Shown: positions 2,598-35,366 of the stretch, in pieces
Numbering within the stretch: position 1 is the stretch's first letter
Layout: each line of letters opens with the position of its first letter
Origin: a virus
DNA length: 60,879 nucleotides
IMG/VR virus record: IMGVR_UViG_3300046000_009431
Span: 1-60,879 of that record
Direction: 5' to 3' (one strand)
Translations under genes and position numbers: made by a program
The notes under the pieces: generated by a model
Told to the model about the DNA's origin: nothing
Database searches by the model: none
The model's input: only the letters and a program-made list of their open reading frames with translations

Positions 2598-2623
2598 CGT
2601 TTCTTTTAATAAGGAGAAAATTT

Positions 2624-2971
2624 ATGACATTAAGATTAATTGACGAAGTTTATTTGTATACATCTTCTCAACCAGAAGATGCGTTAACAAACAGAGAATT
2701 AGTTTCTTGGTTTGACCATTCTGGTATTCCATATATTCATTTATCATATGGAAATGATAATCACGAAGAGGTTTTAACTGCAGTAAATACTTGGTGGCGA
2801 CACGATATTGACACTGGAATTTTACAAGAACCTCTTACGGGATTTCCATTTGTGGTATATACGGAATCGCATTCAGATAAACCAATATCATATTTACCAA
2901 GAAAATATATTACAACTAAAGAAAATATAGTTGAACAATTACCTTCTCTTTATTCATTAGGTAGAGATTAA
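2624..2971 (+). CDS. Hypothetical protein, possible thioredoxin-like fold
   Basis: 115 residues, preceded by AAGGAG. No family is recognised with confidence. The pattern strand (EVYLYTSS), helix, strand (IPYIHLSY), helix, then FPFVVYTE is compatible with a glutaredoxin-like fold, with a proline where such proteins carry a cis-Pro. There is no CxxC pair, so redox activity is not supported. It lies between two putative adhesion/fibre genes and may be a virion accessory or assembly protein; that is inference from position only. Confidence 0.75.
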   Translation: MTLRLIDEVYLYTSSQPEDALTNRELVSWFDHSGIPYIHLSYGNDNHEEVLTAVNTWWRHDIDTGILQEPLTGFPFVVYTESHSDKPISYLPRKYITTKENIVEQLPSLYSLGRD

Positions 2972-2982
2972 AAGGATAAAAA

Positions 2983-5517: not shown

Positions 5518-5790
5518 ATGAAAAAATATGAATATACATATAAAATAAAAGATATTAATATAGCCGAAAATGCTCTTCTTGTTGAATATATGGCTACAGA
5601 TGAATCTTTAACATCATATACTCTTCATATTCCTTCCTATATACTGAATGAAGATGAAACGAGAAAAACTATTGACGAAGTTATTAAATTTTGCGCTCCT
5701 CATGGTAGATGGGAATCTCAAGAAATTTTAGTTGAACAATATAATGATATTTTACATAAAACTGAACTGGTGCCTATACAAAATGCTTGA
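5518..5790 (+). CDS. Hypothetical protein (90 aa)
   Basis: Acidic protein of 90 residues with ribosome site AGGAA. No recognised family. The first two-thirds looks beta-rich (YEYTYKIKDINI, LLVEYMATDE) followed by a helix containing EDETRKTIDEVIKF. Its last codons overlap the start of the next gene (ATG at 5783, stop at 5788-5790), so the two are probably translationally coupled. Position after the fibre genes suggests a small accessory or chaperone role, but nothing in the sequence proves it. Confidence 0.75.
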   Translation: MKKYEYTYKIKDINIAENALLVEYMATDESLTSYTLHIPSYILNEDETRKTIDEVIKFCAPHGRWESQEILVEQYNDILHKTELVPIQNA

Positions 5791-6385
5791 AATACAAAAT
5801 AATGGTATTGCTATATTTGACAATGCCTTTAGTGACGAATATTGCGATCAAGTTATAAATTTTTTTGAATGGTCGCAAAAAAATAATAGAACATGGAATA
5901 GATTACAATCAGAAAATGCTCAAGAAATATATAAAAATGATATATCAGCTTCGCTGCATGCATCAATAAATGAAAGATATTTTTCATCAGATAACACCAA
6001 TTTAGTTGCTGAATTTAATGATACGTTTTTTGATGTTTGGTATGCAGAATATTTAAAATATTTTTCGACATTAAATACTGCAGAAAAGCATGGTATTTTT
6101 GCACACAAAATACAAAAAACTTCTCCTGGAGGAGGATATCATTTATGGCATTTCGAAGCCGGAGGATTAATTACTTCCAGAAGATTAGGTGCATATATTT
6201 TATATTTAAACGACATTGATGTTGGGGGAGAAACTGAATTTCTATATCTTCGTCAACGAATAGAACCGAAAAAAGGAAGATTGGTAATTTTTCCTTCTGG
6301 ATACGTATTTACACATAGAGGAAACCCTCCGTTAACTAGCGATAAATATATAATGACGGGTTGGTTGGAGTATATGGGAGGATGA
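5783..6385 (+). CDS. 2OG-Fe(II) oxygenase, prolyl-4-hydroxylase-like
   Basis: 200 residues. ATG 5783 is chosen because it overlaps the preceding stop and starts the conserved domain; a TTG 51 bases upstream is less likely. The double-stranded beta-helix motifs are visible: YHLWHFE with His123 and Glu125 as likely iron ligands (HxE rather than HxD), GRLVIFPSGYVFTHRG with distal His178, then Lys188 near the 2-oxoglutarate site and GWL. The family hydroxylates protein side chains (P4H type) with Fe(II), O2 and 2-oxoglutarate. First of three consecutive oxygenase genes, overlapping the next by ATGA. The substrate is unknown; the collagen-like protein upstream is a plausible target. Confidence 0.85.
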   Translation: MLEIQNNGIAIFDNAFSDEYCDQVINFFEWSQKNNRTWNRLQSENAQEIYKNDISASLHASINERYFSSDNTNLVAEFNDTFFDVWYAEYLKYFSTLNTAEKHGIFAHKIQKTSPGGGYHLWHFEAGGLITSRRLGAYILYLNDIDVGGETEFLYLRQRIEPKKGRLVIFPSGYVFTHRGNPPLTSDKYIMTGWLEYMGG

Positions 6386-6978
6386 GCAAATATTTATTTC
6401 ACCCTATTGTAACAAAAAATCAAGATATTGGAGATTATGTTTTCTGGCAACAAGGGTTTAGCGATAAGGATATTAATGCTATTATTGCATTAGGAGAAAA
6501 TAGAAACCCAATACAAGCAACTATAGATAGAAATAGAGTTGTTAGGGATATTAGAGTTTCAAATACTTCATGGATAGATTTACAAGAAGATTCAGTTTGG
6601 TTATATGATAGAATATGTGATATTGTATGTAAATTAAATTATCAATACTATAAATTTGATTTAAGCGGGTTTTATGAACATATGCAATTTACTATATATG
6701 AAGGTAATGAATTAGGGCATTATGATTGGCATTTAGACAATAATTTAAATTCAGATTCTCCGCCAAGAAAATTATCTTTTGTTTTACAATTATCAGATCC
6801 AAACGATTATGAAGGCGGCGATTTACAATTAATGCATTCAACAAATCCCGTAACTGTAAAAAAAGAAAAAGGGTTAGTAGTTGTTTTTCCAAGTTTTACT
6901 TTACATAGAGTGACTCCAGTAACAAAAGGAATTAGAAAAACCTTAGTTGTTTGGGTGACTGGACCATCATTTAGATAA
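6382..6978 (+). CDS. 2OG-Fe(II) oxygenase, PiuC/PKHD-like
   Basis: 198 residues from ATG 6382, which overlaps the previous stop (ATGA). An upstream TTG would bury the start in the preceding gene. Key motifs are GHYDWHLDN (His117 and Asp119), YEGGDLQL, and FTLHRVTPVTKGIRK with distal His175 and the 2OG-binding Arg. This arrangement matches the PiuC/PKHD-type Fe(II) dioxygenases rather than the gene upstream, so the two are not a simple tandem duplication. Probably a protein or small-molecule hydroxylase; the target is unknown. Confidence 0.88.
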   Translation: MSKYLFHPIVTKNQDIGDYVFWQQGFSDKDINAIIALGENRNPIQATIDRNRVVRDIRVSNTSWIDLQEDSVWLYDRICDIVCKLNYQYYKFDLSGFYEHMQFTIYEGNELGHYDWHLDNNLNSDSPPRKLSFVLQLSDPNDYEGGDLQLMHSTNPVTVKKEKGLVVVFPSFTLHRVTPVTKGIRKTLVVWVTGPSFR

Positions 6979-7947: not shown

Positions 7948-8694
7948 ATGGCTCAAGTTACAACAAGAGACGAATTAAAAGATTATGCTCTAAGAAGATT
8001 AGGTGCTCCAGTTATCACTATCAATGTTGATGACGAACAATTAGAAGATAGAATTGATGATGCGATTCAATTTTATCAAGATTATCATTATGATGCTACA
8101 GAATCGTTTTTCTGGAAGCACGAAATCACCCAACAAGACGTTGATCAAAAATATTTTACTATTGATCCGGGAATTTTAGGTATTACTAGAATTTTTGCGT
8201 TAAATGAAACTATTACTAAAAATAATATGTTTGATTTAAGATATCAACTTCGTCTTCATGAATTATACGATTTTACATCAACATCATATACTAATTTCTC
8301 CATTACAATGCAACATCTCCAAAATTTAAGTGAAATGTTTACTGGGGAAGTTCCAATTAGATTTCAACGTCATACTGGAAGATTATATGTAGATTGGGGA
8401 TGGGGTTCATCACAGATTCCAGTTGGGTCAATGGTTGTTGCTGAAGGATATAAAGCAATTGACCCAGAAACTTTTGAAAGCGTTTATAATGACCGTTGGC
8501 TAAAAGAATATGTTACCGCATTGTTTAAACGTCAATGGGGCGATAATATGAAAAAGTTTGGCGGTATTCAGCTTCCAGGTGGATTAACTTTAAATGGTAA
8601 AGAAACTTTTGATGAAGCAATATCAGATATACAAAGATTAGAAAATGAAATGCAAGATAGATATGAATTGCCAGTTCAATTTTTAGTTGGATAA
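7948..8694 (+). CDS. gp13: Neck protein gp13
   Basis: 248 residues, ribosome site AAGGAG. The start TTRDELKDYALRRLGAPVI and the following NVDDEQLEDRIDDAI are characteristic of T4 gp13, a head-closure/neck protein that with gp14 seals the portal after packaging and receives the tail. Length is close to T4 gp13 (about 300 residues), slightly short. First gene of the neck-tail-head block and immediately followed by gp14. Confidence 0.93.
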   Translation: MAQVTTRDELKDYALRRLGAPVITINVDDEQLEDRIDDAIQFYQDYHYDATESFFWKHEITQQDVDQKYFTIDPGILGITRIFALNETITKNNMFDLRYQLRLHELYDFTSTSYTNFSITMQHLQNLSEMFTGEVPIRFQRHTGRLYVDWGWGSSQIPVGSMVVAEGYKAIDPETFESVYNDRWLKEYVTALFKRQWGDNMKKFGGIQLPGGLTLNGKETFDEAISDIQRLENEMQDRYELPVQFLVG

Positions 8695-8699
8695 TTATT

Positions 8700-9566
8700 A
8701 TGCCAAGTAAATATTTTCAAAATTATGGTAAAGCAGCAGTCGAGATAAATTTAATCGAGGATCTCTACAACGAGGCGATAAACATTCAAGGCTTCAGTGG
8801 GTACTATATTCCAAATTCGAACGTTGAAGGACGAGATTTAATCTATGGAGACGATCCTTTAAAGCAGTTTGACGACGCATATAAAATGGATATGTATTTG
8901 GTTAATACAATGGATTATGGAGACGAACAAGACTTTTTCTCGAAATTTGGATTAGAAGTAAGAAATCAAACTAAAATTCAAATATCGTTTCGTGAATTTA
9001 TGAAACGAACAACTAAACAGTTTGAACGCCCAATAGAAGGTAATTTAATTTTTATACCGTTTTTTAAAGATTCTGGAGAATTATTTGAAATTAAATTTGT
9101 AAATACATCCAAAGATTTATATACTTTAGGTAGAGTTAGACCTTTCTATTATGAATTATCTCTTGAACCATTTAAATATAATGACGAAAGTTTGGATACT
9201 GGTATTGATTCTATTGATATGATTGAAATTATTGAATCATATAAAACTATTTTAGATGTTGAAGCGGGTACTGGTAATTATACTATTGGAGAAATAATTT
9301 ATCAAGGTAATGCTAATAATAAAGTTGCTTATGGTGAAGTTACTGCATGGGATAGCGCAAACTCTATTGTAACTATAATGAATAATAGTGGAGAATTTTC
9401 TAATACAGCAGGATATATTTATGGCGCCAATAGTAATGCACAATATTTATTAACAACTATTGATGCTAGAGTTCATGAATCTCAATTTGATAATATACCT
9501 ATTTTCGATGAAGTCGTTGATTTTATTGATACTTCTGAAGGTTTTGGTAGTTTAAAATACAAATAA
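8700..9566 (+). CDS. gp14: Neck protein gp14
   Basis: 288 residues. N-terminal SKYFQNYGKAAVEIN followed by an acidic middle (GDDPLKQFDDAYKMDMYL) matches T4-type gp14, which completes the neck between portal and tail together with gp13. Five bases after gp13, so co-translated. A Gly/Asn-rich beta segment near 200-250 (YQGNANNKVAYGEVTAWD) resembles one at the end of the next gene and is a shared small beta domain. Confidence 0.9.
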   Translation: MPSKYFQNYGKAAVEINLIEDLYNEAINIQGFSGYYIPNSNVEGRDLIYGDDPLKQFDDAYKMDMYLVNTMDYGDEQDFFSKFGLEVRNQTKIQISFREFMKRTTKQFERPIEGNLIFIPFFKDSGELFEIKFVNTSKDLYTLGRVRPFYYELSLEPFKYNDESLDTGIDSIDMIEIIESYKTILDVEAGTGNYTIGEIIYQGNANNKVAYGEVTAWDSANSIVTIMNNSGEFSNTAGYIYGANSNAQYLLTTIDARVHESQFDNIPIFDEVVDFIDTSEGFGSLKYK

Positions 9567-9578
9567 GGTAAAAAAGAT

Positions 9579-10538
9579 ATGAGTTCATATAGATTACAAT
9601 CAATAAGAAAAACTACTATAGCATTTGCTAGTTTATTTAAAGACATTCCATTAATAAAATATGACGATCAAGGGCGCGAATCAGAAAGAATAATTGTTCC
9701 AATTATTTATGGCGATAAAGAAAAATATGTAAAACGGTTAGACATTTCGCACGAAAAAGTGCAAATAACATTACCTAGAATTGAATATGGTTTAACATCA
9801 ATGGTTTATGATGTAGATCGTAAATTAAATTCAGCAAATAAATTAATGGGTTGTGCTGCAGCTGGAGATATGTATATTAATTCTCCAATTCCATATAATT
9901 TTAATTTAGAGTTAGTGTTATATACTAGAAATATTGAAGATGCCAATCAAATAATGGAGTATATTTTATCGCATTTTACTCCAGATTATAATATAAAAAT
10001 TGTTATGGTTCCAGAAGCAGGTATTGTTAAAACTATACCAATAACATATAACGGCGAATCTGAAGAAGAAGATTCCACTGGATCGTACGATTCTCCAGTT
10101 AGGTCTGTGTTTAGAACATTAACATTTACTGCCAGAAGTTTTATTTACCAACCTCCATTAGAATATAAACCAATTTTACAAGCAAATACATTTGTTTATA
10201 TACCAAGCCCAATTATGAGTTATACGTTAACTGATGGAACTGGATACTTTACAAAAGGAGAAAGCGTATTCCAGGGTTATTCTTATGATAGAGCTTCAGC
10301 AAGAGGAAGTGTTGTAACTTGGAATGCTAATAACTTGATATTAACTCTTGATACTGTTGTTGGAACATTCGTTGCTAATTCAATTATAACTAATTTAACT
10401 GGATCAGCTCAGTATATTATTGCTGAAACTCCAAATAAAGGATTAGCTTATGATACTGGCGTTACGCCAACTCCAAACACATTCCCAGTTGTTGGACCAT
10501 ATACAGTAAATCAATCTAACTTGGATTATACAACGTAA
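9579..10538 (+). CDS. gp15: Tail sheath terminator/stabiliser gp15
   Basis: 319 residues. YRLQSIRKTTIAFASLF and IPLIKYD are typical of T4 gp15, the ring that caps the tail tube and sheath and joins tail to head. T4 gp15 has about 270 residues; here the extra length is a C-terminal Gly/Asn-rich extension (from about 225, GYFTKGESVFQGYSYD) similar to that in gp14. Ends two bases before gp16. Confidence 0.9.
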   Translation: MSSYRLQSIRKTTIAFASLFKDIPLIKYDDQGRESERIIVPIIYGDKEKYVKRLDISHEKVQITLPRIEYGLTSMVYDVDRKLNSANKLMGCAAAGDMYINSPIPYNFNLELVLYTRNIEDANQIMEYILSHFTPDYNIKIVMVPEAGIVKTIPITYNGESEEEDSTGSYDSPVRSVFRTLTFTARSFIYQPPLEYKPILQANTFVYIPSPIMSYTLTDGTGYFTKGESVFQGYSYDRASARGSVVTWNANNLILTLDTVVGTFVANSIITNLTGSAQYIIAETPNKGLAYDTGVTPTPNTFPVVGPYTVNQSNLDYTT

Positions 10539-10540
10539 TT

Positions 10541-10978
10541 ATGACATCTAAATTTAATAAAACAATGGAGGAAATATTTAATGTTCCTTCATTGGTGAAC
10601 GAAGAAGAAACTGAATTTGCAGAATTTTTACCTGCAGAACAATCAACTCATGATTTATCTACTTTATTAGATCACGATTTAAAAACTGATTATGAAAAAA
10701 CTAGAGAAAGTATTGATTCGTTAATTGCAAAAGGAACTGAAGCTATTGATGATATGTTGGCAATTGCTAGGCAATCAGAAAAAGCTCGCGATTTTGAAGT
10801 TGCTGGCAATATGATAAAAACTGTTGTTGATGCGTCAAAAGAATTACTTGAAGTTCAAAAGAAAATGCGCGATATTACAGGTAAAAAAGAAAACGTTACT
10901 CAAAATATTAAAAATGCAGTTTTTGTTGGTTCTACTAAAGATTTAATACGATCTATTAAAAATGAGAATAATGAATGA
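10541..10978 (+). CDS. gp16: Terminase small subunit gp16
   Basis: 145 residues, largely helical and acidic at the N-terminus, with LLDHDLKTDYEKTRESIDSL and a central coiled-coil-like stretch (IARQSEKARDFEVAGNMIK) then LLEVQKKMRDI. This matches the T4-type small terminase, which forms rings and stimulates the large subunit. Overlaps the gp17 start by ATGA. Confidence 0.87.
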   Translation: MTSKFNKTMEEIFNVPSLVNEEETEFAEFLPAEQSTHDLSTLLDHDLKTDYEKTRESIDSLIAKGTEAIDDMLAIARQSEKARDFEVAGNMIKTVVDASKELLEVQKKMRDITGKKENVTQNIKNAVFVGSTKDLIRSIKNENNE

Positions 10979-11883
10979 TTGATTTTGAGGGTAGCAATAA
11001 GTTATATTATAGAGATAATCCTAATCTAAGAAGAGCGGGTATTGAAAATTGGGAATTCGATCAACATCAAACAGATGAACTTAGAAAATGTATTAATGAC
11101 CCAATATACTTTATTCGTAATTATGTAAAAATTATTAATCTTGATGAAGGTCTTGTCTATTTTGATATGCACGACTATCAAGAAGAAATGGTTCAAGCAT
11201 TTCATGAAAATAGATTTTCTATTGTAAGGATTGGCCGGCAATCAGGTAAAACCACAACATCTGTTGGTTATCTTTTATGGTTATCATTATTTACCGAAAA
11301 TTATAATATTGCTATTACAGCTAATAAAAAATCATTAGCTGTTGAGATTCTTTCTCGATATCAATTAGCCTATGAAAATTTACCTATGTGGTTACAACAA
11401 GGTATTGTTATATGGAATAAAGGTAGTATTGAATTAGAAAATGGATCAAAAATGTTAGCAGCTTCTACTGCTGCTAGTTCTGTTCGTGGTGGATCATTTA
11501 ATCTTGTATTTATGGACGAATTTGCTCACGTTCATAATAACTTAGCCGAAGAATTTTTTACTTCAACATATCCTGTAATTTCCTCAGGTAAAACAACAAA
11601 AATTATTATTGTATCTACTCCTCGTGGTATGAATTTATACTACAAAATGTGGATGGATGCAGTAAGTAAAAAGAGTGATTATAAAGCTGTTGATATTCAT
11701 TGGTCTAGAGTTCCAGGGCGCGATGAAAACTGGAAAGAAACTACGATTAGAAATACTTCTGCTCGTCAGTTTAACCAAGAATTTGCATGCGTTACTGGGG
11801 ATACAATAGTTGAAATACAGGATGAATTTGGTAATGAACAAAAAATTACAATGCGTAAATTACATTCGCTTATGAATTCTTAG
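10975..11883 (+). CDS. gp17: Terminase large subunit gp17, N-terminal half fused to split-intein N fragment
   Basis: 302 residues: residues 1-271 are the packaging ATPase N-extein and 272-302 a short N-intein. ATPase motifs: Walker A RQSGKTT (about 88-94), Walker B LVFMDE (177-182), coupling motif STPRG (214-218). The extein stops at QEFA just before Cys272, and CVTGDTIVEI is a classic intein block A. The stop follows 31 intein residues, so this is not a decayed gene. The C-terminal half is encoded at 12502-13731. Trans-splicing would give a 571-residue gp17 (T4: 610). The N-extein alone has no nuclease domain. Confidence 0.93.
   Translation: MIDFEGSNKLYYRDNPNLRRAGIENWEFDQHQTDELRKCINDPIYFIRNYVKIINLDEGLVYFDMHDYQEEMVQAFHENRFSIVRIGRQSGKTTTSVGYLLWLSLFTENYNIAITANKKSLAVEILSRYQLAYENLPMWLQQGIVIWNKGSIELENGSKMLAASTAASSVRGGSFNLVFMDEFAHVHNNLAEEFFTSTYPVISSGKTTKIIIVSTPRGMNLYYKMWMDAVSKKSDYKAVDIHWSRVPGRDENWKETTIRNTSARQFNQEFACVTGDTIVEIQDEFGNEQKITMRKLHSLMNS
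11788..11880 (+). other. Split intein N fragment (IntN, 31 aa)
   Basis: Starts at Cys (TGC 11788) and ends at the stop. Block A CVTGDTIVEI is followed by a short strand and helix (KITMRKLHSLMNS). Ordinary split inteins have an IntN of about 100 residues, so this is the atypical early split of the AceL-TerL/VidaL type (25 and about 16 residues). Cys1 is intact for the N-S acyl shift. Confidence 0.9.
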
Positions 11884-11896
11884 GAATTCATAATAT

Positions 11897-11904
11897 TATA
11901 AATA
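11897..11904 (+). promoter_or_regulatory. T4-type late promoter (TATAAATA) for HNH and C-terminal gp17
   Basis: Perfect TATAAATA in the 47-base gap between the N-terminal gp17 gene and the HNH gene, 27 bases before the HNH ATG. It would give the HNH gene and the C-terminal half of gp17 their own late transcript, independent of the N-terminal half. Confidence 0.7.
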
Positions 11905-11930
11905 ATTATATTTATAATAGGAGCATATTT

Positions 11931-12527
11931 ATGTCAAAACATAGAAAAATATGGGAAGAGCATTATGGTAGTATTCCAAAAGATTATGAAGGAAGAACAT
12001 ATGAAATACACCATATAGACGGTAATAGGAATAATAATGATATTACCAATTTGAAATGCGTATCAATATGCGAGCATTTTAATATTCATCAAGCGCAAGA
12101 GGAATTCGGAGCTTGCGCTATGATAATGAAACGTATGGATATGTCAACAGAACAAATTTCTAATATACAAAAAGGAATTAAAAGACCTGGAATTGGAGGA
12201 GTAAAAAAAGGAACTATTCCATGGAATAAAGGTAAAAAAATATTTGTTTCCGAAGATTTAAAAATAAAACGTTCTAAAAATAGCACTGGGGAATTAAATT
12301 CTAAAGCAAAATTAAAAGAAAACCAAGTTATAGAAATATTAGAATTATATTTTAGTAGACCAAAATTAGAGTCAGAAGGAATAACACAAAGAAACGGTAG
12401 AGTTGATTCATATGAATGGAGTTTTTCTAAGTTTTATGCAAATACTTATGAATTAACTCCAGCAGCTTTAATGCGATTATTAACCAAAAAAAGTTGGAAA
12501 CATGTTTGGGAAAAATACAAAATATAA
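11931..12527 (+). CDS. HNH homing endonuclease inside the fractured gp17 gene
   Basis: 198 residues, ribosome site AGGAG. HNH core at about 24-54: YEIHHIDGNRNNND, Asn in DITNLKC and His in EHFNIH. Further on, TIPWNKGKK is a NUMOD3-type DNA-binding motif, followed by NSKAKLKENQVIEI, a helix-turn-helix-like segment. It is a free-standing gene between the two intein fragments, so it probably cuts intein-less gp17 alleles and spreads the whole split-intein cassette. Its last 26 bases overlap the start of IntC in another frame. Confidence 0.9.
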   Translation: MSKHRKIWEEHYGSIPKDYEGRTYEIHHIDGNRNNNDITNLKCVSICEHFNIHQAQEEFGACAMIMKRMDMSTEQISNIQKGIKRPGIGGVKKGTIPWNKGKKIFVSEDLKIKRSKNSTGELNSKAKLKENQVIEILELYFSRPKLESEGITQRNGRVDSYEWSFSKFYANTYELTPAALMRLLTKKSWKHVWEKYKI

Positions 12528-12828
12528 AATAAAAACTATAAATGGATGGGAAAAGTTTAGAGGTGTAAATAAATTACATAAAAAACGAACCGTTCAGATT
12601 ATAACACAAAATAACTGTTTTCTTGATTGTACTATAGATCATAAAATAAAAACTCTTGATGGTTATAAAGAAATTAGCGAATTATCTGATTTAGATTTTA
12701 TAGAGACTATTCATGGATTTTCTAAAATTGATTTTATTTCTGAAAATTTTGAATTAGAAGAAGTTTTTGATGTCATAGATGCGGGAAACGATAAATGTTA
12801 TTATACTAATGGAATTTTATCGCATAAT
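12502..12828 (+). other. Split intein C fragment (IntC, 109 aa)
   Basis: Because the split is very early, IntC carries block B (CTIDHKIKT, Thr44 and His47) as well as blocks F and G (EEVFDVIDAGND; TNGILSHN). Penultimate His108 and terminal Asn109 are present for Asn cyclisation, and the next codon is TGC (Cys+1). The opening MFGKNT...NGW resembles the IntC of the metagenomic AceL-TerL intein, recalled from the literature, not aligned here. Confidence 0.9.
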
Positions 12829-13731
12829 TGCGAATTTTTAGGTTCTACAAATACATTAATCGATGGATCAAAATTACAAACTCTTGTTGCAGTAGATCCA
12901 TTAGATACTGATGATGAAATATTTGCTGGAATAACAATTCCAAATGAAATGGATGTATTTATTCCTCCAGTTAAAGAATCATTTGATGATGAAACTAAAA
13001 AACAAATAGATAAAGACCATATTTATGCAATGACTGTTGACGTTTCAGAGGGGAAAAACTTAGATTATGCTGCATTTTCCATTTTTGATGTATCAACAAT
13101 TCCATATACACAAGTAGCTACATATAGAAATAATCAATTACATCCAATGTTATTTCCAGATATTATTAAAATGGCTGGAGAATATTATAATAATGCATAT
13201 GTATTAATTGAGGTTAATAATAATCCAACAGTAGCAGATACTTTATTTCAAGATTTAGAATATGAAAATGTATTAAAAGTTTATGCAGGAAACAAAAAAG
13301 CTCAACAAATAAGCGAGAACGGTAAAGCAACACAAAATGGCGTAAATATGAGCCCATTAGTCAAACGTGTTGGCTGTACCACATTAAAGACTTTAATTGA
13401 AACTGATAAATTACGAATTAATTCCAGCGAAACTATATATGAATTAACTCGATTTATTGCAACAAATAACTCATTTGCAGCTGAAGAAGGAGCTAATGAT
13501 GATTTAGCGATGACTTTGGTTATTTTTGCTTGGTTATCAACTCAAAAATTATTTATAGAATTATCTTCTACAGATATCCGTAAAAGATTACAAATAGAAA
13601 ATAATTATATTAAAGAAGATGATATTGACGTTCCACCTATGCCGCAATTTAGTAATCCATTAATGGATAGATTTACATTAGAAGATGGTGATTTATGGGA
13701 AGTTGTTGAACCAGCAGGATTTTATTATTAA
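12502..13731 (+). CDS. gp17: Split-intein C fragment fused to terminase large subunit gp17, C-terminal half
   Basis: 409 residues: 1-109 are IntC, 110-409 the C-extein. IntC ends in ILSHN and the extein begins CEFLGS with Cys+1. Nuclease acids of the RNase H-like domain: Asp180 in TVDVSEG, Glu237 in LIEVNN, and Asp333/334 in NDDLAM. The ATG at 12502 lies inside the HNH gene, with only a weak site (TTGG) upstream, so expression may depend on translational coupling. Together with 10975-11787 it rebuilds the complete motor-nuclease. Confidence 0.92.
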   Translation: MFGKNTKYKIKTINGWEKFRGVNKLHKKRTVQIITQNNCFLDCTIDHKIKTLDGYKEISELSDLDFIETIHGFSKIDFISENFELEEVFDVIDAGNDKCYYTNGILSHNCEFLGSTNTLIDGSKLQTLVAVDPLDTDDEIFAGITIPNEMDVFIPPVKESFDDETKKQIDKDHIYAMTVDVSEGKNLDYAAFSIFDVSTIPYTQVATYRNNQLHPMLFPDIIKMAGEYYNNAYVLIEVNNNPTVADTLFQDLEYENVLKVYAGNKKAQQISENGKATQNGVNMSPLVKRVGCTTLKTLIETDKLRINSSETIYELTRFIATNNSFAAEEGANDDLAMTLVIFAWLSTQKLFIELSSTDIRKRLQIENNYIKEDDIDVPPMPQFSNPLMDRFTLEDGDLWEVVEPAGFYY

Positions 13732-13748
13732 ACATAAACGCTGAAAAT

Positions 13749-13756
13749 TATAAATA
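13749..13756 (+). promoter_or_regulatory. T4-type late promoter (TATAAATA) for gp18
   Basis: Perfect TATAAATA 48 bases upstream of the tail sheath ATG, in the 72-base gap after gp17. Confidence 0.8.
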
Positions 13757-13803
13757 CCTCTATGAAAACTGATTTTCTATTTTTATAACAAGGAGTACAA
13801 TTT

Positions 13804-15924
13804 ATGGGGTTTCAATTATCACCTGGAGTAAATGTATCAGAAATTGATTTAACTAACGTAGTTCCAGGAGTTAGTTCATCAATAGGAGCATTTGCCGGAC
13901 AATTTAGCTGGGGACCAGCAGGTATCAGAACATTAGTAGATTCAGAAAATAGATTAGTTTCTACTTTCGGCAAACCTACAAATGAAAATTACGCATCATT
14001 CTTTACTGCTGCTAATTTCTTAGCGTATACAAACAATCTTAGAGTTGTTAGAGCTATAGACAATTCTAATACATTTAACTCAACATGTATTTCAGAATTT
14101 ATTAATTTAAATTCTTTAACTGCAAATACTCGTTCAGGGAATACAGAAGTAGTATTTAACCAAAGCATTGGATCTTATTTGAGTAGCGGAGATAAATTTA
14201 CATTAACTACAGTTGACGGTCCATTTATTTTGACTGCAAATACAGTTAACGGAAATGTCGTAAATGTTGTTGCTAATATCGTTGGAGCAGCAAATGGAGC
14301 AATTGCAGTTTTACCTACGTCTCAAACAGATGTAAGTATTGCAAACGAAGAAGATTACGAATTAAATTTTGATGCAGGAACATATTCTAAATTTGGTGCA
14401 TTTTTTGGCCGTTATCCAAGCGATTTAGGGAACTCATTAAGTATTTCTGTATGTTCTTCTAATACCTCATTTAGTCAAACAGGATTAACTGCAAATACAA
14501 CATTAGGCTTGCCATCTGTAACATTAAACGTTGGATATGCTAATACATTCTTGACTATTGGCGATATAGTAAAAGTTGGAGGAACCGATTATCCTATTTC
14601 TGGATTTACTTCTACTTCTGCGACAAATACAGTTTTAGCAGTTTCTAAAAATGGAGCAGCAACTGCAACTAATATTACGGCATCAACAAGATGGGCGTAT
14701 GCAGACCAATTTGACTCAAAACCTACTTCATCAGCATATGCTATTGATAGTAAAGGTGCGGAAAACGATGAATTACATATAATTGTAATTGATACTGATG
14801 GAAAAATTACAGGCGAAAAAGGAACTATATTAGAAAAATTTGCTCATGTATCAAAAGCGCAAGACGCTAAAACAGATGACGGCTCGCCAAGCTATTATGT
14901 AACTAAAATTTTAAATGAATCAAAATATATCTATGTTGCTAACCATTTAACTGGTTCGACAAATTGGGGTGATATGCTTGATAATGGACTAGTTTACGAT
15001 AAATTAACAAATTATTATCATAAATTGGGAAGAGGAACTAATGTTGCTCCATCTGCAGGAGATTTACAATTAGCATACGATAAATTTAGTAATGCTGATG
15101 AAGTTGATATTTCTTTATTGTTATCTGGCGCTGCTGATGCCACTTTAGCTAATCATGTATTAGATATAGTAAACCAAAGAAAAGATTGCGTTGCATTTGT
15201 TTCTCCATTAAGAGCTGATGCGGTTGATTCAGTTAATTTAGATAACATTATTGAATATAGAAATGCATTAACTCCATCAACTTCTTATTCAGTATTTGAT
15301 TCTGGATGGAAATATCAATTCGATAAATATAACAACAAATATCGTTATGTTCCATTAAATGGTGATACTGCGGGTTTATGTGCTAGAACTGATAATGTAA
15401 GAGATCCATGGTTTTCTCCTGCTGGATTTAATCGCGGTCAAATCTTAAATGCAATTAAATTGTCATGGAATCCAACTAAAGCTCAAAGAGATGAATTGTA
15501 CAAAAATGGAATTAATCCAGTTGTTGCATTCCCAGGAGAAGGAATTATCCTTTATGGCGATAAAACAATGCAAATGAAACCATCTGCATTTGACAGAATT
15601 AATGTTCGTAGATTGTTTATTGTTCTTGAAAAAGCTATTGCAATTGCAGCAAAATACTCTCTATTTGAATTCAACGATTCGTTTACAAGAGCGCAATTTA
15701 TATCTATGGTTGAACCATTCTTAAGAGATGTAAAAGGACGTAGAGGTATCTATGATTTCTCGGTAATTTGCGATGAAACAAATAATACTGCTGAAGTTAT
15801 TGATACAAATAGATTCGTTGGTGATATTTACATTAAACCAGCTAGATCTATCAACTTTATCCAGTTGAATTTCGTAGCAGTTCGTACTGGCGTTGACTTT
15901 ACTGAAATTGCAGGTAAATTCTAA
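13804..15924 (+). CDS. gp18: Contractile tail sheath protein gp18
   Basis: 706 residues (T4: 659), ribosome site AAGGAG. N-terminus GFQLSPGVNVSEIDLTNVVP and the following SSIGAFAGQFSWGPAG are diagnostic of T4-type sheath proteins; the C-terminal core (FDRINVRRLFIVLEKAI; PARSINFIQLNFVAVRTG) holds the interlocking strands of the sheath. The central part (about 110-290) is a variable surface domain. Expressed from its own late promoter, as expected for a high-copy virion protein. Confidence 0.97.
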   Translation: MGFQLSPGVNVSEIDLTNVVPGVSSSIGAFAGQFSWGPAGIRTLVDSENRLVSTFGKPTNENYASFFTAANFLAYTNNLRVVRAIDNSNTFNSTCISEFINLNSLTANTRSGNTEVVFNQSIGSYLSSGDKFTLTTVDGPFILTANTVNGNVVNVVANIVGAANGAIAVLPTSQTDVSIANEEDYELNFDAGTYSKFGAFFGRYPSDLGNSLSISVCSSNTSFSQTGLTANTTLGLPSVTLNVGYANTFLTIGDIVKVGGTDYPISGFTSTSATNTVLAVSKNGAATATNITASTRWAYADQFDSKPTSSAYAIDSKGAENDELHIIVIDTDGKITGEKGTILEKFAHVSKAQDAKTDDGSPSYYVTKILNESKYIYVANHLTGSTNWGDMLDNGLVYDKLTNYYHKLGRGTNVAPSAGDLQLAYDKFSNADEVDISLLLSGAADATLANHVLDIVNQRKDCVAFVSPLRADAVDSVNLDNIIEYRNALTPSTSYSVFDSGWKYQFDKYNNKYRYVPLNGDTAGLCARTDNVRDPWFSPAGFNRGQILNAIKLSWNPTKAQRDELYKNGINPVVAFPGEGIILYGDKTMQMKPSAFDRINVRRLFIVLEKAIAIAAKYSLFEFNDSFTRAQFISMVEPFLRDVKGRRGIYDFSVICDETNNTAEVIDTNRFVGDIYIKPARSINFIQLNFVAVRTGVDFTEIAGKF

Positions 15925-15936
15925 GTAACAGTTAGT

Positions 15937-15964
15937 TTGGTGACGAGTCTAGACTCGTCACCAA
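15937..15964 (+). terminator. Perfect 28-bp palindrome, probable hairpin terminator after gp18
   Basis: TTGGTGACGAGTCT followed by its exact reverse complement, 12 bases after the gp18 stop and five before the next TATAAATA. The RNA would form a very stable stem, but the bases after it (CCATTATAAAT) are not a U-run. It may attenuate gp18 readthrough or protect the 3' end of the sheath mRNA. Confidence 0.6.
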
Positions 15965-15968
15965 CCAT

Positions 15969-15976
15969 TATAAATA
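15969..15976 (+). promoter_or_regulatory. T4-type late promoter (TATAAATA) for gp19
   Basis: Perfect TATAAATA directly after the palindrome and 44 bases before the gp19 ATG. Confidence 0.8.
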
Positions 15977-16019
15977 ATTAAAAGAATATTTACGATTTTC
16001 AAATAAGGAGTATCCGAAC

Positions 16020-16559
16020 ATGGCGTTCAATATTGCAGAATTTAGATCAGCAATGATTGGTGATGGTGCTAGACCGAATTTATTTTCAGTTTCGCTTACA
16101 TTTCCAACTGTTGCTAGTGCACCTGTTGCATCTAAACAATTAACATTTATGGCTCATGCTACAACATTACCTCCATCAATTATGGGCGTTGCATCACAAT
16201 TTTACTTTGGTCGTCAAGTAAAATTTGCTGGCGATAGACAATTTCCAGATTGGAGTATTACAGTTATTAATGACGAAGATTTTAATATTAGAAATGCATT
16301 TGAATCTTGGTCAGATAAGTTAAATAGTCATTCACAAAACGTTCGTGCAGCTGGAGCAATCAATTCAACATTGTATTGCGCTGATGCTGTTGTTACGCAA
16401 TACAGTAAAACTGGTGCAGCAATCAAAGAATATAAATTTGTTGGTATGTTCCCTAATACTGTTGATCCAATTGCTCTTGATTGGGGTTCAAATGATAGAA
16501 TTGAAGAATTTGGTGTAACATTCTCGTATCAATACTGGGAATCTAAATCAGTAACCTAA
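16020..16559 (+). CDS. gp19: Tail tube protein gp19
   Basis: 179 residues (T4: 163), ribosome site AAGGAG. AFNIAEFRSAMIGDGARPNL, then FMAHATTLPPS and PDWSITVINDEDFNIRNAFE, match T4-like tail tube subunits, which stack as hexamers inside the sheath and conduct the DNA. Located between sheath and portal genes as in T4. Confidence 0.95.
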   Translation: MAFNIAEFRSAMIGDGARPNLFSVSLTFPTVASAPVASKQLTFMAHATTLPPSIMGVASQFYFGRQVKFAGDRQFPDWSITVINDEDFNIRNAFESWSDKLNSHSQNVRAAGAINSTLYCADAVVTQYSKTGAAIKEYKFVGMFPNTVDPIALDWGSNDRIEEFGVTFSYQYWESKSVT

Positions 16560-16601
16560 TATATAAGAATATACTATTAATATTTAAAAAGGTAATTTAT
16601 T

Positions 16602-18278
16602 TTGGCTAAATTTTCATTATTCGGTTTTAAAATAGGGAAAGATACACCAGCACAGGAAGTGCTACCTTCTTTTTCAGCTCCAGTACTAGATGATGGTGCA
16701 GTTACTATAACTGCAGCAGCGCATTATGGTACCACTATTGATTTAGATTCAAATTATAAAAATGATGTAGAGTTAATTACTCGATATCGCGAAATGGCTA
16801 TGCAACCAGAAATTGAAAGTGCTGTTGATGATATTATTAATGAAGCAATTATCAATGAAGATGGAGTTATTATAAAATTAAAATTAGATAATTTGAAAGT
16901 TGCACCTAAAATAAAGAAAGCTATTGAAGATGAATTTGATAATATCTTGACTCTTTTGAATTTTAAACAATTGGGTCAAGATATCTTTAGAAGATATTAT
17001 ATTGATGGAAGAATGTATTATAATATTATTCTCGATAAAGCAAATCCAAATGCAGGTATTCAAGAATTAAGATATACAGATCCAAGAAAAATTACAAAAA
17101 TTCGCGAAATTAAAAAAGTAAAAGATCAAACTACTGGTTATGATATTGTTGCTGGTTATGTTGAATATTATATCTATTCTGATACTATATCAACAAAATC
17201 TAACTTAACAAATTCTGGATTAAGAATTGCTCCAGATTCAATGATTTGCGTTACATCAGGTTTATTGGACGCAAAAAGATCAATTATATTAAGTAACTTA
17301 CATAAATGCATTAAACCTCTAAATCAATTAAGAATGATCGAGGATGCTAGCGTAATTTACAAAGTATCAAGAGCTCCAGAAAGACGTATTTTTTATATTG
17401 ATGTTGGTAATCTACCTAAAATGAAGGCAGAACAATATCTTAAAGATATTATGACAAAATATAAAAATAAAGTCGTTTATGATGCTACAACAGGTGAAAT
17501 CAGAGATGATAGAAGATTCCTTTCTATGATGGATGATTTCTGGTTACCTAGACGCTCTGATAATAAATCAACAGAAATTACTACATTACCATCTTCTGCT
17601 GCATTTGATGATATGTCAATGGTAGAATATTTCGAGAAAAAATTATATAAAGCACTTAATGTTCCATTTTCTAGATTAGTTCAACCCGATAGTGCATTTG
17701 ATGTTGGTACAAATCAAGTAATTTCTCGTGATGAAATTAAATTTGACAAATTTATCCAAAGATTAAGAAATAAATTTACTGACGTGTTTGATCAAGCATT
17801 AAAAGTTCAATGCCAATTAAAAGGTATTTGCTCTGATGATGAGTTTGATGTATACAAACAAGATTTCGATTATGAATTTGTTAGAGATAATAATTATGCT
17901 GAAATGAAAGATTCAGAATTATTACAGAATAGATTAAATTTATTGGCAGTTGTTGATCCATATAAAGGCGTTTATTATTCTCAAGAATGGATCCAAAAAA
18001 ATATCCTTAAAATGGATGACGATGAAATCGAACAAATGCAAAAACAAATTGCACAAGAAATTAAAGATCAAGTATATCCGGACCCAAAATTAATGAATGA
18101 TCCAATGGCGGGATTAGGCGGAGATCCAGGAGTTCCCGGAGAAGATCCTAATGCTGATCCAGATGGAGATGGTGTACCTAACGATGAAGATGCAAATGAT
18201 CAAGATCCATCTGTAGGTAGATCTCCTTCAGGAAATAAAAAATCAAATAAACAAGCGCAGAATCCGTACTATGACTAA
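16602..18278 (+). CDS. gp20: Portal vertex protein gp20
   Basis: 558 residues (T4: 524). It matches T4 gp20 along its length: ITRYREMAMQPEIESAVDDI, FRRYYIDGRMYYNII, RAPERRIFYIDVGNLPK, and DDFWLPRRSDNKSTEITTLP. The start is TTG at 16602 with AAAGG upstream; no ATG lies before the conserved region. A weak start may suit a protein needed at only twelve copies per head. A hydrophilic Asp/Pro/Gly-rich tail (DPNADPDGDGVPNDEDAND) is added at the C-terminus. It overlaps the next gene. Confidence 0.96.
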   Translation: MAKFSLFGFKIGKDTPAQEVLPSFSAPVLDDGAVTITAAAHYGTTIDLDSNYKNDVELITRYREMAMQPEIESAVDDIINEAIINEDGVIIKLKLDNLKVAPKIKKAIEDEFDNILTLLNFKQLGQDIFRRYYIDGRMYYNIILDKANPNAGIQELRYTDPRKITKIREIKKVKDQTTGYDIVAGYVEYYIYSDTISTKSNLTNSGLRIAPDSMICVTSGLLDAKRSIILSNLHKCIKPLNQLRMIEDASVIYKVSRAPERRIFYIDVGNLPKMKAEQYLKDIMTKYKNKVVYDATTGEIRDDRRFLSMMDDFWLPRRSDNKSTEITTLPSSAAFDDMSMVEYFEKKLYKALNVPFSRLVQPDSAFDVGTNQVISRDEIKFDKFIQRLRNKFTDVFDQALKVQCQLKGICSDDEFDVYKQDFDYEFVRDNNYAEMKDSELLQNRLNLLAVVDPYKGVYYSQEWIQKNILKMDDDEIEQMQKQIAQEIKDQVYPDPKLMNDPMAGLGGDPGVPGEDPNADPDGDGVPNDEDANDQDPSVGRSPSGNKKSNKQAQNPYYD

Positions 18279-33541: not shown

Positions 33542-33616
33542 GCCTTTTTAGTATAATGGCTATTACAGTTGACTTGTAATCTTCAGATCTCAGTTCGATT
33601 CTGGGAAGAGGCTCCA
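33542..33616 (+). tRNA. tRNA-Thr(TGT), weak anticodon stem
   Basis: Acceptor GCCTTTT/AAGAGGC, T-arm CTCAG-TTCGATT-CTGGG and loop CTTGTAA giving anticodon TGT. TCCA follows (encoded CCA). The anticodon stem GTTGA/TCTTC has two T-T mismatches (positions 28-42 and 29-41), so function may be impaired or depend on modification. Confidence 0.7.
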
Positions 33617-33624
33617 AATTATTA

Positions 33625-33701
33625 CTCCCATTAGCTCAGTCTGGTAGAGCGATCCGTTTGGGGCGGATAGGTCGGCAGTTCGAATCTGTCATGGGAGACC
33701 A
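33625..33701 (+). tRNA. tRNA-Pro(TGG)
   Basis: Acceptor CTCCCAT/ATGGGAG, anticodon stem ATCCG/CGGAT with loop TTTGGGG (anticodon TGG), T-arm with TTCGAAT, encoded CCA. Confidence 0.93.
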
Positions 33702-33723
33702 AATGTTTATTGAGAATTATATT

Positions 33724-34335
33724 ATGATTATAGGTTTACTTGGTTTTATTGGTTCCGGAAAAGGAACTGCTGGCGATATTTTAGTAGAAAATGATTTTAC
33801 TGCTTTATCCTTTGCTGGTTCGTTAAAGGATGCAGTATCTTCTATTTTTGGTTGGGATAGAGCTCTATTAGAAGGTGATACTGAAGAATCGCGAGTTTTT
33901 CGTGAAACTGTTGATAATTTTTGGTCAGTTAAATTTGGTAAATCTATAACGCCTAGATATATTTTACAGTATTTTGGTACAGAAGTTTGTAGAAATAATT
34001 TACTTGATAGTATTTGGGTTGATTCTCTAGAAAGAAAAATTCAACAGTATGATAATGTAGTTATTACTGATGTTAGATTTAAAAATGAAATTAGTTTTTT
34101 AAGGTCTATTGGGGCTAAATTTATACATATTGACAGAAAAGAAACGCGACCTGAATGGTATGGATTTCTTGACTCAGTAGATAGACCTGTATTTGTAGCT
34201 TATGCTGAAGCTAGAGATATTCATAAATCTGAATATGAATGGTATAGTAATCCTCATATTGACTATATAATTCAAAATAATGGAACTCTACAAGAATTAG
34301 AGCTAAAAATATTAGATGTAATTGTAAATAATTAA
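33724..34335 (+). CDS. gp1: Deoxynucleoside monophosphate kinase (T4 gp1-like)
   Basis: 203 residues from ATG 33724; this start puts the P-loop GFIGSGKGT near residue 7 as in the family. ATG 33703 is possible, while a frame opening inside the Pro tRNA is not credible. TPRYILQYFGTEVCRNNLL, WVDSLERKI and VITDVRFKNE match T4 gp1-type dNMP kinases, which phosphorylate dNMPs for phage DNA synthesis. Embedded among the tRNA genes. Confidence 0.88.
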   Translation: MIIGLLGFIGSGKGTAGDILVENDFTALSFAGSLKDAVSSIFGWDRALLEGDTEESRVFRETVDNFWSVKFGKSITPRYILQYFGTEVCRNNLLDSIWVDSLERKIQQYDNVVITDVRFKNEISFLRSIGAKFIHIDRKETRPEWYGFLDSVDRPVFVAYAEARDIHKSEYEWYSNPHIDYIIQNNGTLQELELKILDVIVNN

Positions 34336-34337
34336 AT

Positions 34338-35009: not shown

Positions 35010-35017
35010 AAGATAAT

Positions 35018-35092
35018 TCCCTAGTAGCTCAGTGGTAGAGCTGACGGCTGTTAACCGTCCGGTCGGTGGTTCGAACCCATCCTAGGGAGCCA
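35018..35092 (+). tRNA. tRNA-Asn(GTT)
   Basis: Acceptor TCCCTAG/CTAGGGA, anticodon stem GACGG/CCGTC with loop CTGTTAA, T-arm with TTCGAAC, encoded GCCA end. Confidence 0.95.
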
Positions 35093-35109
35093 AATAAGAC
35101 CCATTAGGT

Positions 35110-35183
35110 GTGACTATGACGGAATTGGTAGACGTCCTCGATTGTGATTCGAGATTTTGTGGGTTCAAGTCCCACTAGTCACC
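35110..35183 (+). tRNA. tRNA-His(GTG)
   Basis: Acceptor GTGACTA/TAGTCAC, anticodon stem CTCGA/TCGAG with loop TTGTGAT, T-arm GTGGG-TTCAAGT-CCCAC. Discriminator C73 as usual for tRNA-His; CCA is not encoded. Confidence 0.9.
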
Positions 35184-35206
35184 CCTAATGGGTTTAAAAA
35201 ATAATT

Positions 35207-35281: not shown

Positions 35282-35289
35282 CTAATATT

Positions 35290-35366
35290 GGGTAGGTAGT
35301 TTAATTGGATAAAACGTGTGCCTCCAAAACACAAAGATGAGAGTTCGAATCTTTCCCTGCCCGCCA
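35290..35366 (+). tRNA. tRNA-Trp(CCA)
   Basis: Acceptor GGGTAGG/CCTGCCC, anticodon loop CTCCAAA (anticodon CCA) with stem TGTGC/ACACA (innermost C-A mismatch), T-arm with TTCGAAT, encoded GCCA. Confidence 0.88.

What the first reader, a model, noticed from the sequence alone, without database searches (positions are those of the whole stretch)
10975..13731. Terminase gp17 is a fractured gene: early-split intein with an HNH endonuclease gene between the halves
Seen: the N-half ends in QEFA then Cys1 block A and stops after 31 intein residues. The C-half starts with 109 intein residues ending in His-Asn, then CEFLGS. All splicing residues (Cys1, block B Thr/His, His-Asn, Cys+1) are present. Known: metagenomic AceL-TerL and VidaL inteins have this rare very short IntN, and fractured genes with endonucleases in between are described. 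New here is the complete locus in its phage context, with a NUMOD3-HNH nuclease, a late promoter inside the gap, and a C-half ATG within the nuclease gene.
Basis: partly seen in the sequence, partly recalled or inferred. Interest (0 to 1): 0.9.

Follow-up and report, generated by a model that had tools for sequence, protein, structure and literature searches.

The report
Split terminase gene with nuclease inside
A virus of bacteria makes its DNA-packaging motor protein as two separate pieces that very probably weld themselves together, and the DNA that splits the gene also carries a likely cutting enzyme and has moved between related viruses; the type is known, but the locus comes with a natural uninterrupted twin, and some relatives appear to split the same gene into three or four pieces.

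Summary
Confirmed. A T4-type phage terL (gp17) gene is coded as an N-half (271 extein + 31 IntN residues) and a C-half (109 IntC + 300 extein residues), with an HNH endonuclease gene between. It is an early-split intein of the AceL/GOS/Cat-TerL kind: each fragment hits its counterpart chain of the solved Cat intein (6DSL; IntN weakly), the IntC model is closest to Cat, and contiguous inteins at the same terL site indicate one HINT domain.

The cassette is 0.3% diverged where flanking terL is 5% diverged, and an extein tree rejects one origin (AU p=0.004), so it has moved as a unit. One relative lost the nuclease yet stays split.

That a full phage locus is new fails: Serratia, Providencia and Vibrio phage records hold the arrangement, and Campylobacter phage CP81 codes terL halves 22 kb apart. 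Some contigs code terL in three or four pieces. Splicing and cleavage are untested. New member of a known kind; the multi-piece relatives are the more novel part.

The parts
10975..11883 (+). terL (gp17) N-half gene, 302 aa: ATPase-domain extein (10975-11787) plus IntN
   Evidence: ORF; Terminase_6N 1e-21; phrog_5989 9.5e-66
11785..11787 (+). -1 extein codon GCA (Ala); a Gly codon in all 20 intein-less junctions printed
11788..11880 (+). IntN, 31 residues from Cys1 to the N-half end
   Evidence: only PDB sequence hit at E<=10 is CatN, 6dsl_A, E=0.0097; weak alignment (2.6 bits) to positions 1-28 of the contiguous-intein HMM
11869..11878 (+). 10-bp direct repeat CTTATGAATT, copy 1 (deletion endpoint in relative L011)
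   Evidence: sequence comparison
11897..11904 (+). T4-type late-promoter-like TATAAATA in the gap, ending 27 nt before the HNH start
11931..12527 (+). free-standing HNH endonuclease gene, 198 aa, I-TevIII-like at its N-terminus
   Evidence: HNH_3 2e-14; phrog_12324 intron-like DNA endonuclease 9.9e-27; 57.9% over residues 4-79 to T-even intron-associated endonuclease 3
12445..12454 (+). 10-bp direct repeat CTTATGAATT, copy 2, inside the HNH gene
12502..12527 (+). 26-nt double-coding overlap: HNH C-terminus / IntC start; the C-half start also lies inside the gap gene in L034, L041 and L050
12502..12828 (+). IntC, 109 residues (block B TIDH; terminal SHN)
   Evidence: 6dsl_B (CatC) E=1e-7, query residues 1-111, starting at the Met of CatC; AF2 pLDDT 91.5, best PDB fold match 6dsl_B
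12829..13728 (+). C-extein (terL nuclease domain), 300 aa, starts with Cys+1
   Evidence: Terminase_6C 3.8e-13; identical protein sequence in intein-less L012/L020
12502..13731 (+). terL C-half gene, 409 aa
11788..12828 (+). whole mobile cassette, 1041 bp (IntN + gap + HNH + IntC)
   Evidence: absent as one 1041-bp gap in L012 and L020; 3 of 1038 differences from L010 against 87 of 1719 in flanking exteins
7948..18278 (+). context: T4-type late module: head-tail adaptor, head closure, tail sheath stabilizer, terS, terL, tail sheath, tail tube, portal
   Evidence: PHROGs

Best explanation
The terL gene of this T4-type phage has been entered by a mobile cassette made of an early-split intein and a free-standing HNH homing-type endonuclease gene. 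Two polypeptides are translated: ATPase half + IntN (31 aa), and IntC (109 aa) + nuclease half. The fragments associate as in the Cat/AceL-TerL inteins, fold into one HINT domain and ligate the exteins by Cys1/Cys+1 protein trans-splicing, giving a 571-residue terminase (...QEFA-CEFLGS...). The HNH protein, probably made from a late promoter in the gap and translationally coupled to the C-half through a 26-nt overlap, cuts the intein-less allele near QEFG|CEFLGS during co-infection, and repair copies the whole cassette. Shown: anatomy, family, empty site, cassette mobility. Inferred: trans-splicing, late expression and coupling, HNH cleavage as the driver.
For: IntN and IntC each hit the matching chain of the Cat split intein. 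IntC model pLDDT 91.5, closest fold 6DSL chain B. Contiguous inteins at the same site join both parts in one frame; predicted HINT fold for the L099 one; an HMM of five contiguous inteins is matched by IntC at positions 35-140 and, weakly, by IntN at 1-28. Empty alleles: 20 junctions printed, all uninterrupted with Cys+1; L012/L020 exteins 0.82% different from the window around one 1041-bp gap. Mobility: cassette 3/1038 against exteins 87/1719 differences from L010, Fisher p=8e-15; four-fold sites 2/91 against 35/197; single origin of occupied alleles rejected, AU p=0.004. terL in unlinked pieces in a viable isolate: CP81 has an IntN-ended N-half at 125.2 kb (+) and an IntC-headed C-half at 101.9-103.2 kb (-), and the window's N-half has only these two matches in the record at E<=0.01. 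HNH_3 2e-14.
Against: No protein or transcript data. The IntN match is weak by itself (E=0.0097; 2.6 bits, where the HNH protein as control scores 0.3 and intein-less L012 -1.5). In the wide IntC alignment of 50 sequences only G15, F19 and H47 are invariant and Cys+1 is at 90% or more; the last residue Asn is below 90% (many Walker-B-site relatives end in Gln). HNH active site and target were not tested; cassette spread could be ordinary recombination. In relatives L035 and L041 the gap gene has NUMOD3 but no HNH domain found by Pfam, and at most 18 of 40 gap ORFs match any of seven nuclease-type Pfam families, so the gap gene is not shown to be a nuclease everywhere. The -1 residue after splicing is Ala where empty alleles have Gly. 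Recombination within terL weakens tree tests.
Confidence: 0.86

Rival explanations
1. Genes in pieces without splicing: the two halves act as separate subunits (ATPase and nuclease chains) that associate non-covalently, the intein remnants being inert, as for a phage ribonucleotide reductase split by an endonuclease gene.
For: The break lies between the Terminase_6N and Terminase_6C matches; a HEG-split reductase that keeps its function is on record (a sentence in PMC10448857; Friedrich 2007 seen only as a reference entry in PMC3322345).
Against: In relatives breaks also fall at Walker A and Walker B (motif names recalled), where unjoined fragments could hardly work; splicing residues are kept in the close family (Thr44, His47, His108, Asn109, Cys110 invariant in 6 of 6 aligned); contiguous relatives exist at the same site.
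Confidence: 0.08
2. RNA splicing: the gap is a group I (or II) intron with a HEG, inserted in the gene of a contiguous intein; one precursor is made and splices in cis.
For: Introns with HNH HEGs are common in T4-type phages (recalled); a paper on Campylobacter phage IBB_35 described its terL as interrupted by an intein and an intron enclosing an HNH gene (PMC3322345, passages).
Against: No intron family in Rfam at E<=5 over 10500-14100; only 47 nt lie between the N-half stop and HNH, and HNH overlaps the C-half, leaving no room for a ribozyme core; an own C-half start at this place is common among relatives.
Confidence: 0.03
3. The split intein splices, but its spread is passive: co-infecting phages recombine the late module and the cassette hitch-hikes; the HNH protein is inactive or serves another role.
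For: Window and L009/L010 are mosaic (identity falls to 61-79% in blocks outside terL); L011 carries the cassette with most of the HNH gene deleted; gap genes of L035/L041 lack a detected HNH domain.
Against: The drop in divergence coincides with the cassette ends: nearest differences from L010 lie at 11757 and 12843; the HNH gene is intact and 1 of 53 four-fold sites differs from L010; gap genes of part of the wider set match nuclease-type families.
Confidence: 0.28
4. The locus is an assembly artefact or a decaying pseudogene.
For: All IMG/VR loci used here are assembled contigs, mostly from metagenomes; near-identical copies may come from one population.
Against: The same occupied locus is in four other contigs at 99.9-100% DNA identity (L006, L007, L008, L028) and in two at 88% over the region (L009, L010); ORFs are intact; isolates have the same layout.
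Confidence: 0.01

Closest known systems
AceL-TerL and GOS-TerL split inteins and the engineered consensus Cat intein (PDB 6DSL)
   Same: Host protein TerL; very short IntN (AceL 25, Cat 30, GOS 37 aa per review PMC11766414, passages seen; here 31) and IntC of 104 in Cat (here 109); match of IntC to CatC from its Met and of IntN to CatN.
   Different: Natural locus with complete neighbourhood, HNH gene in the gap, a 26-nt coding overlap, empty alleles and evidence of transfer. The gene layout of the AceL and GOS loci was not available to me. GOS-TerL uses Ser1.
Fractured genes (Dassa et al. 2009): split intein with a free-standing endonuclease gene between halves
   Same: Same genomic arrangement.
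   Different: Recalled as featuring a Vsr-like endonuclease family; here HNH_3. Paper not held, so compared from recall; citing papers seen.
MIJ3 jumbo phage PolB split intein with HNH orf154
   Same: Isolate with a putative split intein and an HNH gene between halves (PMC6892783, passages seen).
   Different: Other host protein; block B lies in its N-terminal region, so it is not the early split.
Serratia phage 92A1, Providencia phage PSTRCR_127, Vibrio phage K364 terL loci
   Same: TerL split at or next to the same site, early split, C-half start inside the 3' end of the nuclease-coding ORF.
   Different: GIY-YIG-like nuclease, fused to IntN in K364; the Serratia/Providencia insertion appears offset by one codon (read by eye); the C-halves of 92A1 and K364 and the N-half of PSTRCR_127 are annotated as hypothetical.
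I-TevIII / mobile HNH endonucleases of T-even phages
   Same: HNH_3 N-terminal domain, 57.9% over residues 4-79 to T-even intron-associated endonuclease 3; 33.6% over residues 4-137 to I-TevIII-like proteins of Salmonella phages; phrog_12324.
   Different: No match reaches 80% of the protein; sits in an intein gap, no intron found.

Membership tests
Split inteins, early-split TerL type (AceL/GOS/Cat) | Nucleophilic residue 1 (Cys/Ser) and block A | tested here: met
   Cys1 of CVTGDTIVEI; hit to CatN E=0.0097
Split inteins, early-split TerL type (AceL/GOS/Cat) | Block B TxxH, terminal His-Asn, Cys/Ser/Thr +1 | tested here: met
   Thr44, His47, His108, Asn109, Cys110 invariant in 6 of 6 sequences aligned (window, L034, L041, L050, L053, L054; the last two look alike)
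Split inteins, early-split TerL type (AceL/GOS/Cat) | Break after block A, giving a short IntN and a long IntC | tested here: met
   31 + 109 aa; IntC residue 1 aligns to the Met of CatC
Split inteins, early-split TerL type (AceL/GOS/Cat) | The two fragments form one HINT fold | tested here: met
   IntC model matches 6dsl_B and other inteins; a contiguous homologue at the same site is predicted as a full HINT fold. Indirect for IntN: the window's two chains were not modelled together, and the IntN match to the contiguous HMM is weak.
Split inteins, early-split TerL type (AceL/GOS/Cat) | Trans-splicing activity | not testable with these tools
   needs co-expression
Fractured-gene arrangement | Free-standing endonuclease gene between the two halves of an intein-split gene | tested here: met
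   HNH gene 11931-12527
Fractured-gene arrangement | Vsr-like endonuclease family of the 2009 description (recalled; may not be required) | tested here: not met
   HNH_3 instead; so it is filed by arrangement, not by nuclease family
Mobile element with homing | Intein-less allele at the exact site | tested here: met
   20 junctions; exteins of L012 and L020 0.82% from the window, one 1041-bp gap
Mobile element with homing | Cassette less diverged than flanks; scattered distribution | tested here: met
Mobile element with homing | Endonuclease cuts the empty allele | not testable with these tools
   needs purified protein
Group I intron with HEG | Intron core in the gap | tested here: not met
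   no Rfam intron match at E<=5; 47-nt gap and coding overlap

The most novel reading that the evidence does not exclude
TerL is a gene that phages have broken again and again at three catalytic or structural points (Walker A, Walker B, QEF|C) with early-split inteins. The gaps serve as slots for nuclease genes of unrelated families, so that in some phages the packaging motor is assembled from three or four polypeptides by two or three successive trans-splicing reactions. The middle chains have the IntC-extein-IntN order, the same order that would cyclise a protein (recalled), so the inteins of one gene must have become mutually exclusive. In CP81 the halves need not even be neighbours.
Probability: 0.58. 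Interest if true: 0.75.

Novelty: new member of a known kind. Interest (0 to 1): 0.52.

Why it matters
The early-split TerL inteins used as protein-labelling tools are presented as rare natural cases (review PMC11766414). Here one sits in a full late module with a near-isogenic intein-less twin, a cassette that has crossed between lineages, a natural nuclease deletion, and contiguous relatives at the same site. That makes the question of how naturally split inteins arise and spread (nuclease invasion of a contiguous intein; split kept after nuclease loss) directly testable. The relatives suggest that a packaging motor can be made from up to four chains, a possible source of mutually exclusive short-IntN split inteins.

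Tried and rejected
Rfam scan for an intron in the gap: no intron family. DNA of window 1-25000 against named phages gave only pieces of at most 256 bases in 6 records; no named close relative and no host assigned (the best-ranked named record for the C-half is a Synechococcus phage at 44.7%). TATAAATA by count is not above chance; only its position is informative. IQ-TREE gave no tree and a thread-count error; the FastTree run used an alignment in which L022 was out of register by one codon; one search is the corrected run. That tree holds 26 of 32 sequences (window + 31 loci): L030-L032 and L034-L036 were left out, six divergent empties (L021, L023-L027) went in with the C-extein only, and L011 with part of the N-extein; some inner nodes are weak (32, 49). 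NUMOD3 in the window's own HNH protein: not found. Dassa 2009 and Bachmann & Mootz 2015 are not held. Nine paper searches listed no paper whose title or abstract start told of terL in three or more split-intein pieces, but only open-licence papers were searched, and I saw listings and selected passages only. L030 (starts inside the C-extein) is uninformative for the junction; L031 is empty by tblastn but its junction was not printed.
Full report
WHAT IS THERE. The window is a single virus record of 60,879 bases. At 7948-18278 lies a T4-type late module: head-tail adaptor, head closure, tail sheath stabilizer, small terminase, large terminase, tail sheath, tail tube and portal, by PHROGs. The large terminase is coded in two ORFs with a third between them: N-half 10975-11883, HNH gene 11931-12527, C-half 12502-13731. 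Pfam gives Terminase_6N, HNH_3 and Terminase_6C. The N-half has 271 terminase residues and then 31 intein residues; the C-half has 109 intein residues and then 300 terminase residues. The sum, 571, equals the uninterrupted terL of L012.

IT IS ONE INTEIN, SPLIT EARLY. IntC matches chain B (CatC) of 6DSL, the consensus atypical split intein, over its whole length, starting at the Met of CatC (E=1e-7). The 31-residue IntN, searched against 177,635 distinct PDB sequences, has one hit at E<=10: chain A (CatN) of the same structure (E=0.0097). The IntC model (47 sequences, pLDDT 91.5) has 6DSL chain B as best Foldseek match, followed by gp41-1 and VidaL. In IMG/VR there are contiguous inteins at the same terL site (L069, L099, L086, L117). 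An HMM of these four plus one Walker-B intein places the window's IntC at positions 35-140 (E=2e-21 for eight sequences) and its IntN at 1-28; the IntN score is weak (2.6 bits; controls HNH 0.3, intein-less L012 -1.5) though at the right place. The contiguous L099 intein is predicted as a HINT fold (best model pLDDT 90.4 from five sequences; the other four models 61-79) and is nearest to VidaL. In the six closest IntC sequences the splicing residues are invariant; in the wide set of 50 only His47 among them is invariant, Cys+1 is at 90% or more, and the terminal Asn is not, because many Walker-B-site relatives end in Gln.

THE EMPTY SITE. The C-half search of IMG/VR gave 31 loci. Seven close ones carry the intein (L006-L011, L028), as do two at 49% identity (L034, L035). 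Twenty have a printed, uninterrupted junction QEFG|C, all with a Gly codon at -1 and Cys at +1; L031 is empty by tblastn and L030 is uninformative. From about 8.6 kb to the end of their overlap, L012 and L020 are 98-100% identical to the window per 200-bp bin, except bins of 96% and 97% in L012 and one of 96% in L020; upstream of about 8 kb they diverge. The only gap inside terL is one of 1041 bp, and the exteins differ by 0.82%. The occupied allele has GCA (Ala) where empties have Gly at -1, so the spliced product would differ by that residue.

IT MOVES AS A UNIT. Between the window and L009/L010 the cassette differs at 3 of 1038 bases and the exteins at 87 of 1719 (Fisher p=8e-15); four-fold degenerate sites differ at 2 of 91 in the cassette and 35 of 197 in the exteins (the count used 11791-12828, leaving Cys1 with the extein, and the 26-nt overlap is counted in both frames). 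In L011 IntN differs at 0 of 87 and IntC at 3 of 327 bases, against 25 of 292 in the part of the N-extein compared and 99 of 903 in the C-extein. An extein tree of 26 of the 32 sequences puts occupied alleles in three places; forcing them into one clade is rejected (AU p=0.004). Some inner nodes are weak, and recombination within terL could disturb this test.

NUCLEASE LOSS WITHOUT REJOINING. In L011 most of the HNH gene is gone. The end points are two copies of CTTATGAATT (11869-11878 and 12445-12454 in the window), leaving a 15-codon stretch of the gene; the halves stay in different frames. The split therefore does not depend on the nuclease being present.

THE NUCLEASE AND THE OVERLAP. The HNH protein is 57.9% identical over residues 4-79 to T-even intron-associated endonuclease 3. 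Its last codons overlap the C-half start by 26 nt. The C-half start also lies inside the gap gene in L034 (26 nt), L041 (38 nt) and L050, although these share only 54-55% of IntC residues with the window. To see how general this is I grouped 139 IntC occurrences into 69 clusters and listed, for representatives classed as split, non-terL ORFs of at least 90 aa ending between 130 nt past and 200 nt before the IntC start: 42 ORFs. I set aside two (a 779-aa ORF in L056 that is a terL N-half by its IntN, and an adaptor gene in L085); 36 of the other 40 overlap the C-half ORF. ORF starts are mechanical, and other split clusters have no such ORF (for example L062, L064, L070). Pfam on these 40 finds nuclease-type families, each in one to six members: MTES_1575, DUF559, HNH_3, HNH, SegE_GIY-YIG, GIY-YIG and a TnsA-like domain; together at most 18 of 40 members, so more than half show none of these. 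Also against a simple nuclease story, the gap genes of L035 and L041 match NUMOD3 but no HNH domain.

EXPRESSION. TATAAATA is not over-represented in number (15 against 19.1 expected). Of 11 plus-strand copies, 8 lie within 70 nt upstream of a plus-strand ORF of 70 aa or more (background 8.6%, P=4e-7), among them 11897 before HNH, 13749 before the tail sheath and 15969 before the tail tube. A late promoter for HNH plus C-half is plausible but unproved.

ISOLATES HAVE IT TOO. Serratia phage 92A1 and Providencia phage PSTRCR_127 show N-half, GIY-YIG-like gene and C-half, with a 14-nt overlap; Pfam support for the 92A1 gene is SegE_GIY-YIG at E=0.0024, below its cut-off. Vibrio phage K364 has a GIY-YIG-like sequence fused behind IntN, read by eye without a Pfam call, and a C-half overlapping it. 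Campylobacter phage CP81, an isolate, has an IntN-ended N-half at 125,158-125,874 (+), annotated terL2, and an IntC-headed C-half at 101,876-103,204 (-), annotated terL1; the window's N-half has only these two matches in the record at E<=0.01. Propagating phages thus appear to rely on terL in unlinked pieces.

MORE THAN TWO PIECES. A scan with an IntC alignment gave 80 loci, the cap, of 86 matches. For 16 loci that I picked by hand, I placed the terminase parts on a terL HMM. Twelve of 16 (L011, L064, L065, L068, L079, L090, L093, L094, L101, L108, L109, L122) have terL spread over at least three ORFs in order; neighbouring parts overlap by up to about 40 model positions, where alignments run into intein sequence, L101 leaves positions 181-204 unmatched, and most leave about 282-320 unmatched. 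The other four (L066, L086, L111, L117) show two ORFs in the stretch held. L108 has four: model positions 8-92, 88-172, 171-282 and 323-398 (contig end), broken at Walker A, Walker B and QEF|C (motif names recalled). The middle chains carry IntC in front and, read by eye, IntN behind. These are assembled contigs and nothing is known of their products.

COMPARISON WITH WHAT IS KNOWN. By IntN length, break point, host protein and structure match, the intein is of the AceL-TerL/GOS-TerL/Cat kind (review PMC11766414, passages read). By arrangement it is a fractured gene (Dassa 2009, not held; cited in PMC6892783 and PMC10448857, passages seen). MIJ3 PolB is an isolate example with an HNH gene, but with another break point. 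PMC3322345 (passages) described the terL of Campylobacter phage IBB_35 as interrupted by an intein and an intron enclosing an HNH gene; I suspect, without test, that it is the same kind of split intein. The locus is therefore a new member of a known kind. What I have not seen in print, within the nine searches listed under Tried and rejected, is terL in three or four split-intein pieces.

CHANGES AFTER CHECKING.

Noticed in passing
L108:1831-7236: terL coded in four ORFs with three split inteins (Walker A, Walker B, QEF|C): two gaps hold free-standing ORFs (2165-3169 with a DUF559 match; 5693-6610 with no Pfam family at E<=0.01), and the 617-aa second chain has a long extra C-terminal part.
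   Followed up: partly
L011:1-3415: terL with three inteins; the second has IntN in one frame with a GIY-YIG-like sequence (by eye) whose stop overlaps the next start; the third is the window's cassette with most of the HNH gene deleted between 10-bp repeats.
   Followed up: yes
L005 and L123 (Campylobacter phage CP81): terL halves with IntN and IntC lie about 22 kb apart on opposite strands of an isolate genome (annotated terL2 and terL1).
   Followed up: partly
L034:3265-5475: Contiguous Walker A intein in a 736-aa ORF that also contains, in another frame, a 304-aa ORF (3590-4504) resembling a Vsr-like endonuclease by eye (IIEFDGTYWHS; label recalled, no call).
   Followed up: no
L034:5514-6026, L041:1852-2376: Gap gene keeps the C-terminal part of the HNH protein and NUMOD3 but Pfam finds no HNH domain (same gene in L035 and L041); the overlap with the C-half start is kept. 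Possible non-nuclease role.
   Followed up: partly
L068:6667-7319: A further split-intein-like pair in the same contig, in what looks like a RecA/UvsX Walker A (FAGESG|C ... SHN|SGK; gene name recalled), ORFs 29 nt apart.
   Followed up: no
L059, L060, L062: from 6245: An ORF of 1287-1363 aa just downstream of the split terL carries another intein-like stretch (GIVVHN|SMLDKI, weak HMM score).
   Followed up: no
L065:1457-2275: An additional 272-aa terL-like ORF upstream of the multi-piece terL (HMM positions 17-270).
   Followed up: no
L064:4152-6200 against L069:3024-6197: Inteins that look alike by eye, split in L064 with zero bases between the two ORFs and contiguous in L069: a pair for studying how the split arises.
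   Followed up: no
window 33542-35732: Eight tRNA genes by ARAGORN, one with a four-base anticodon call (aatg) at 35207-35282.
   Followed up: no
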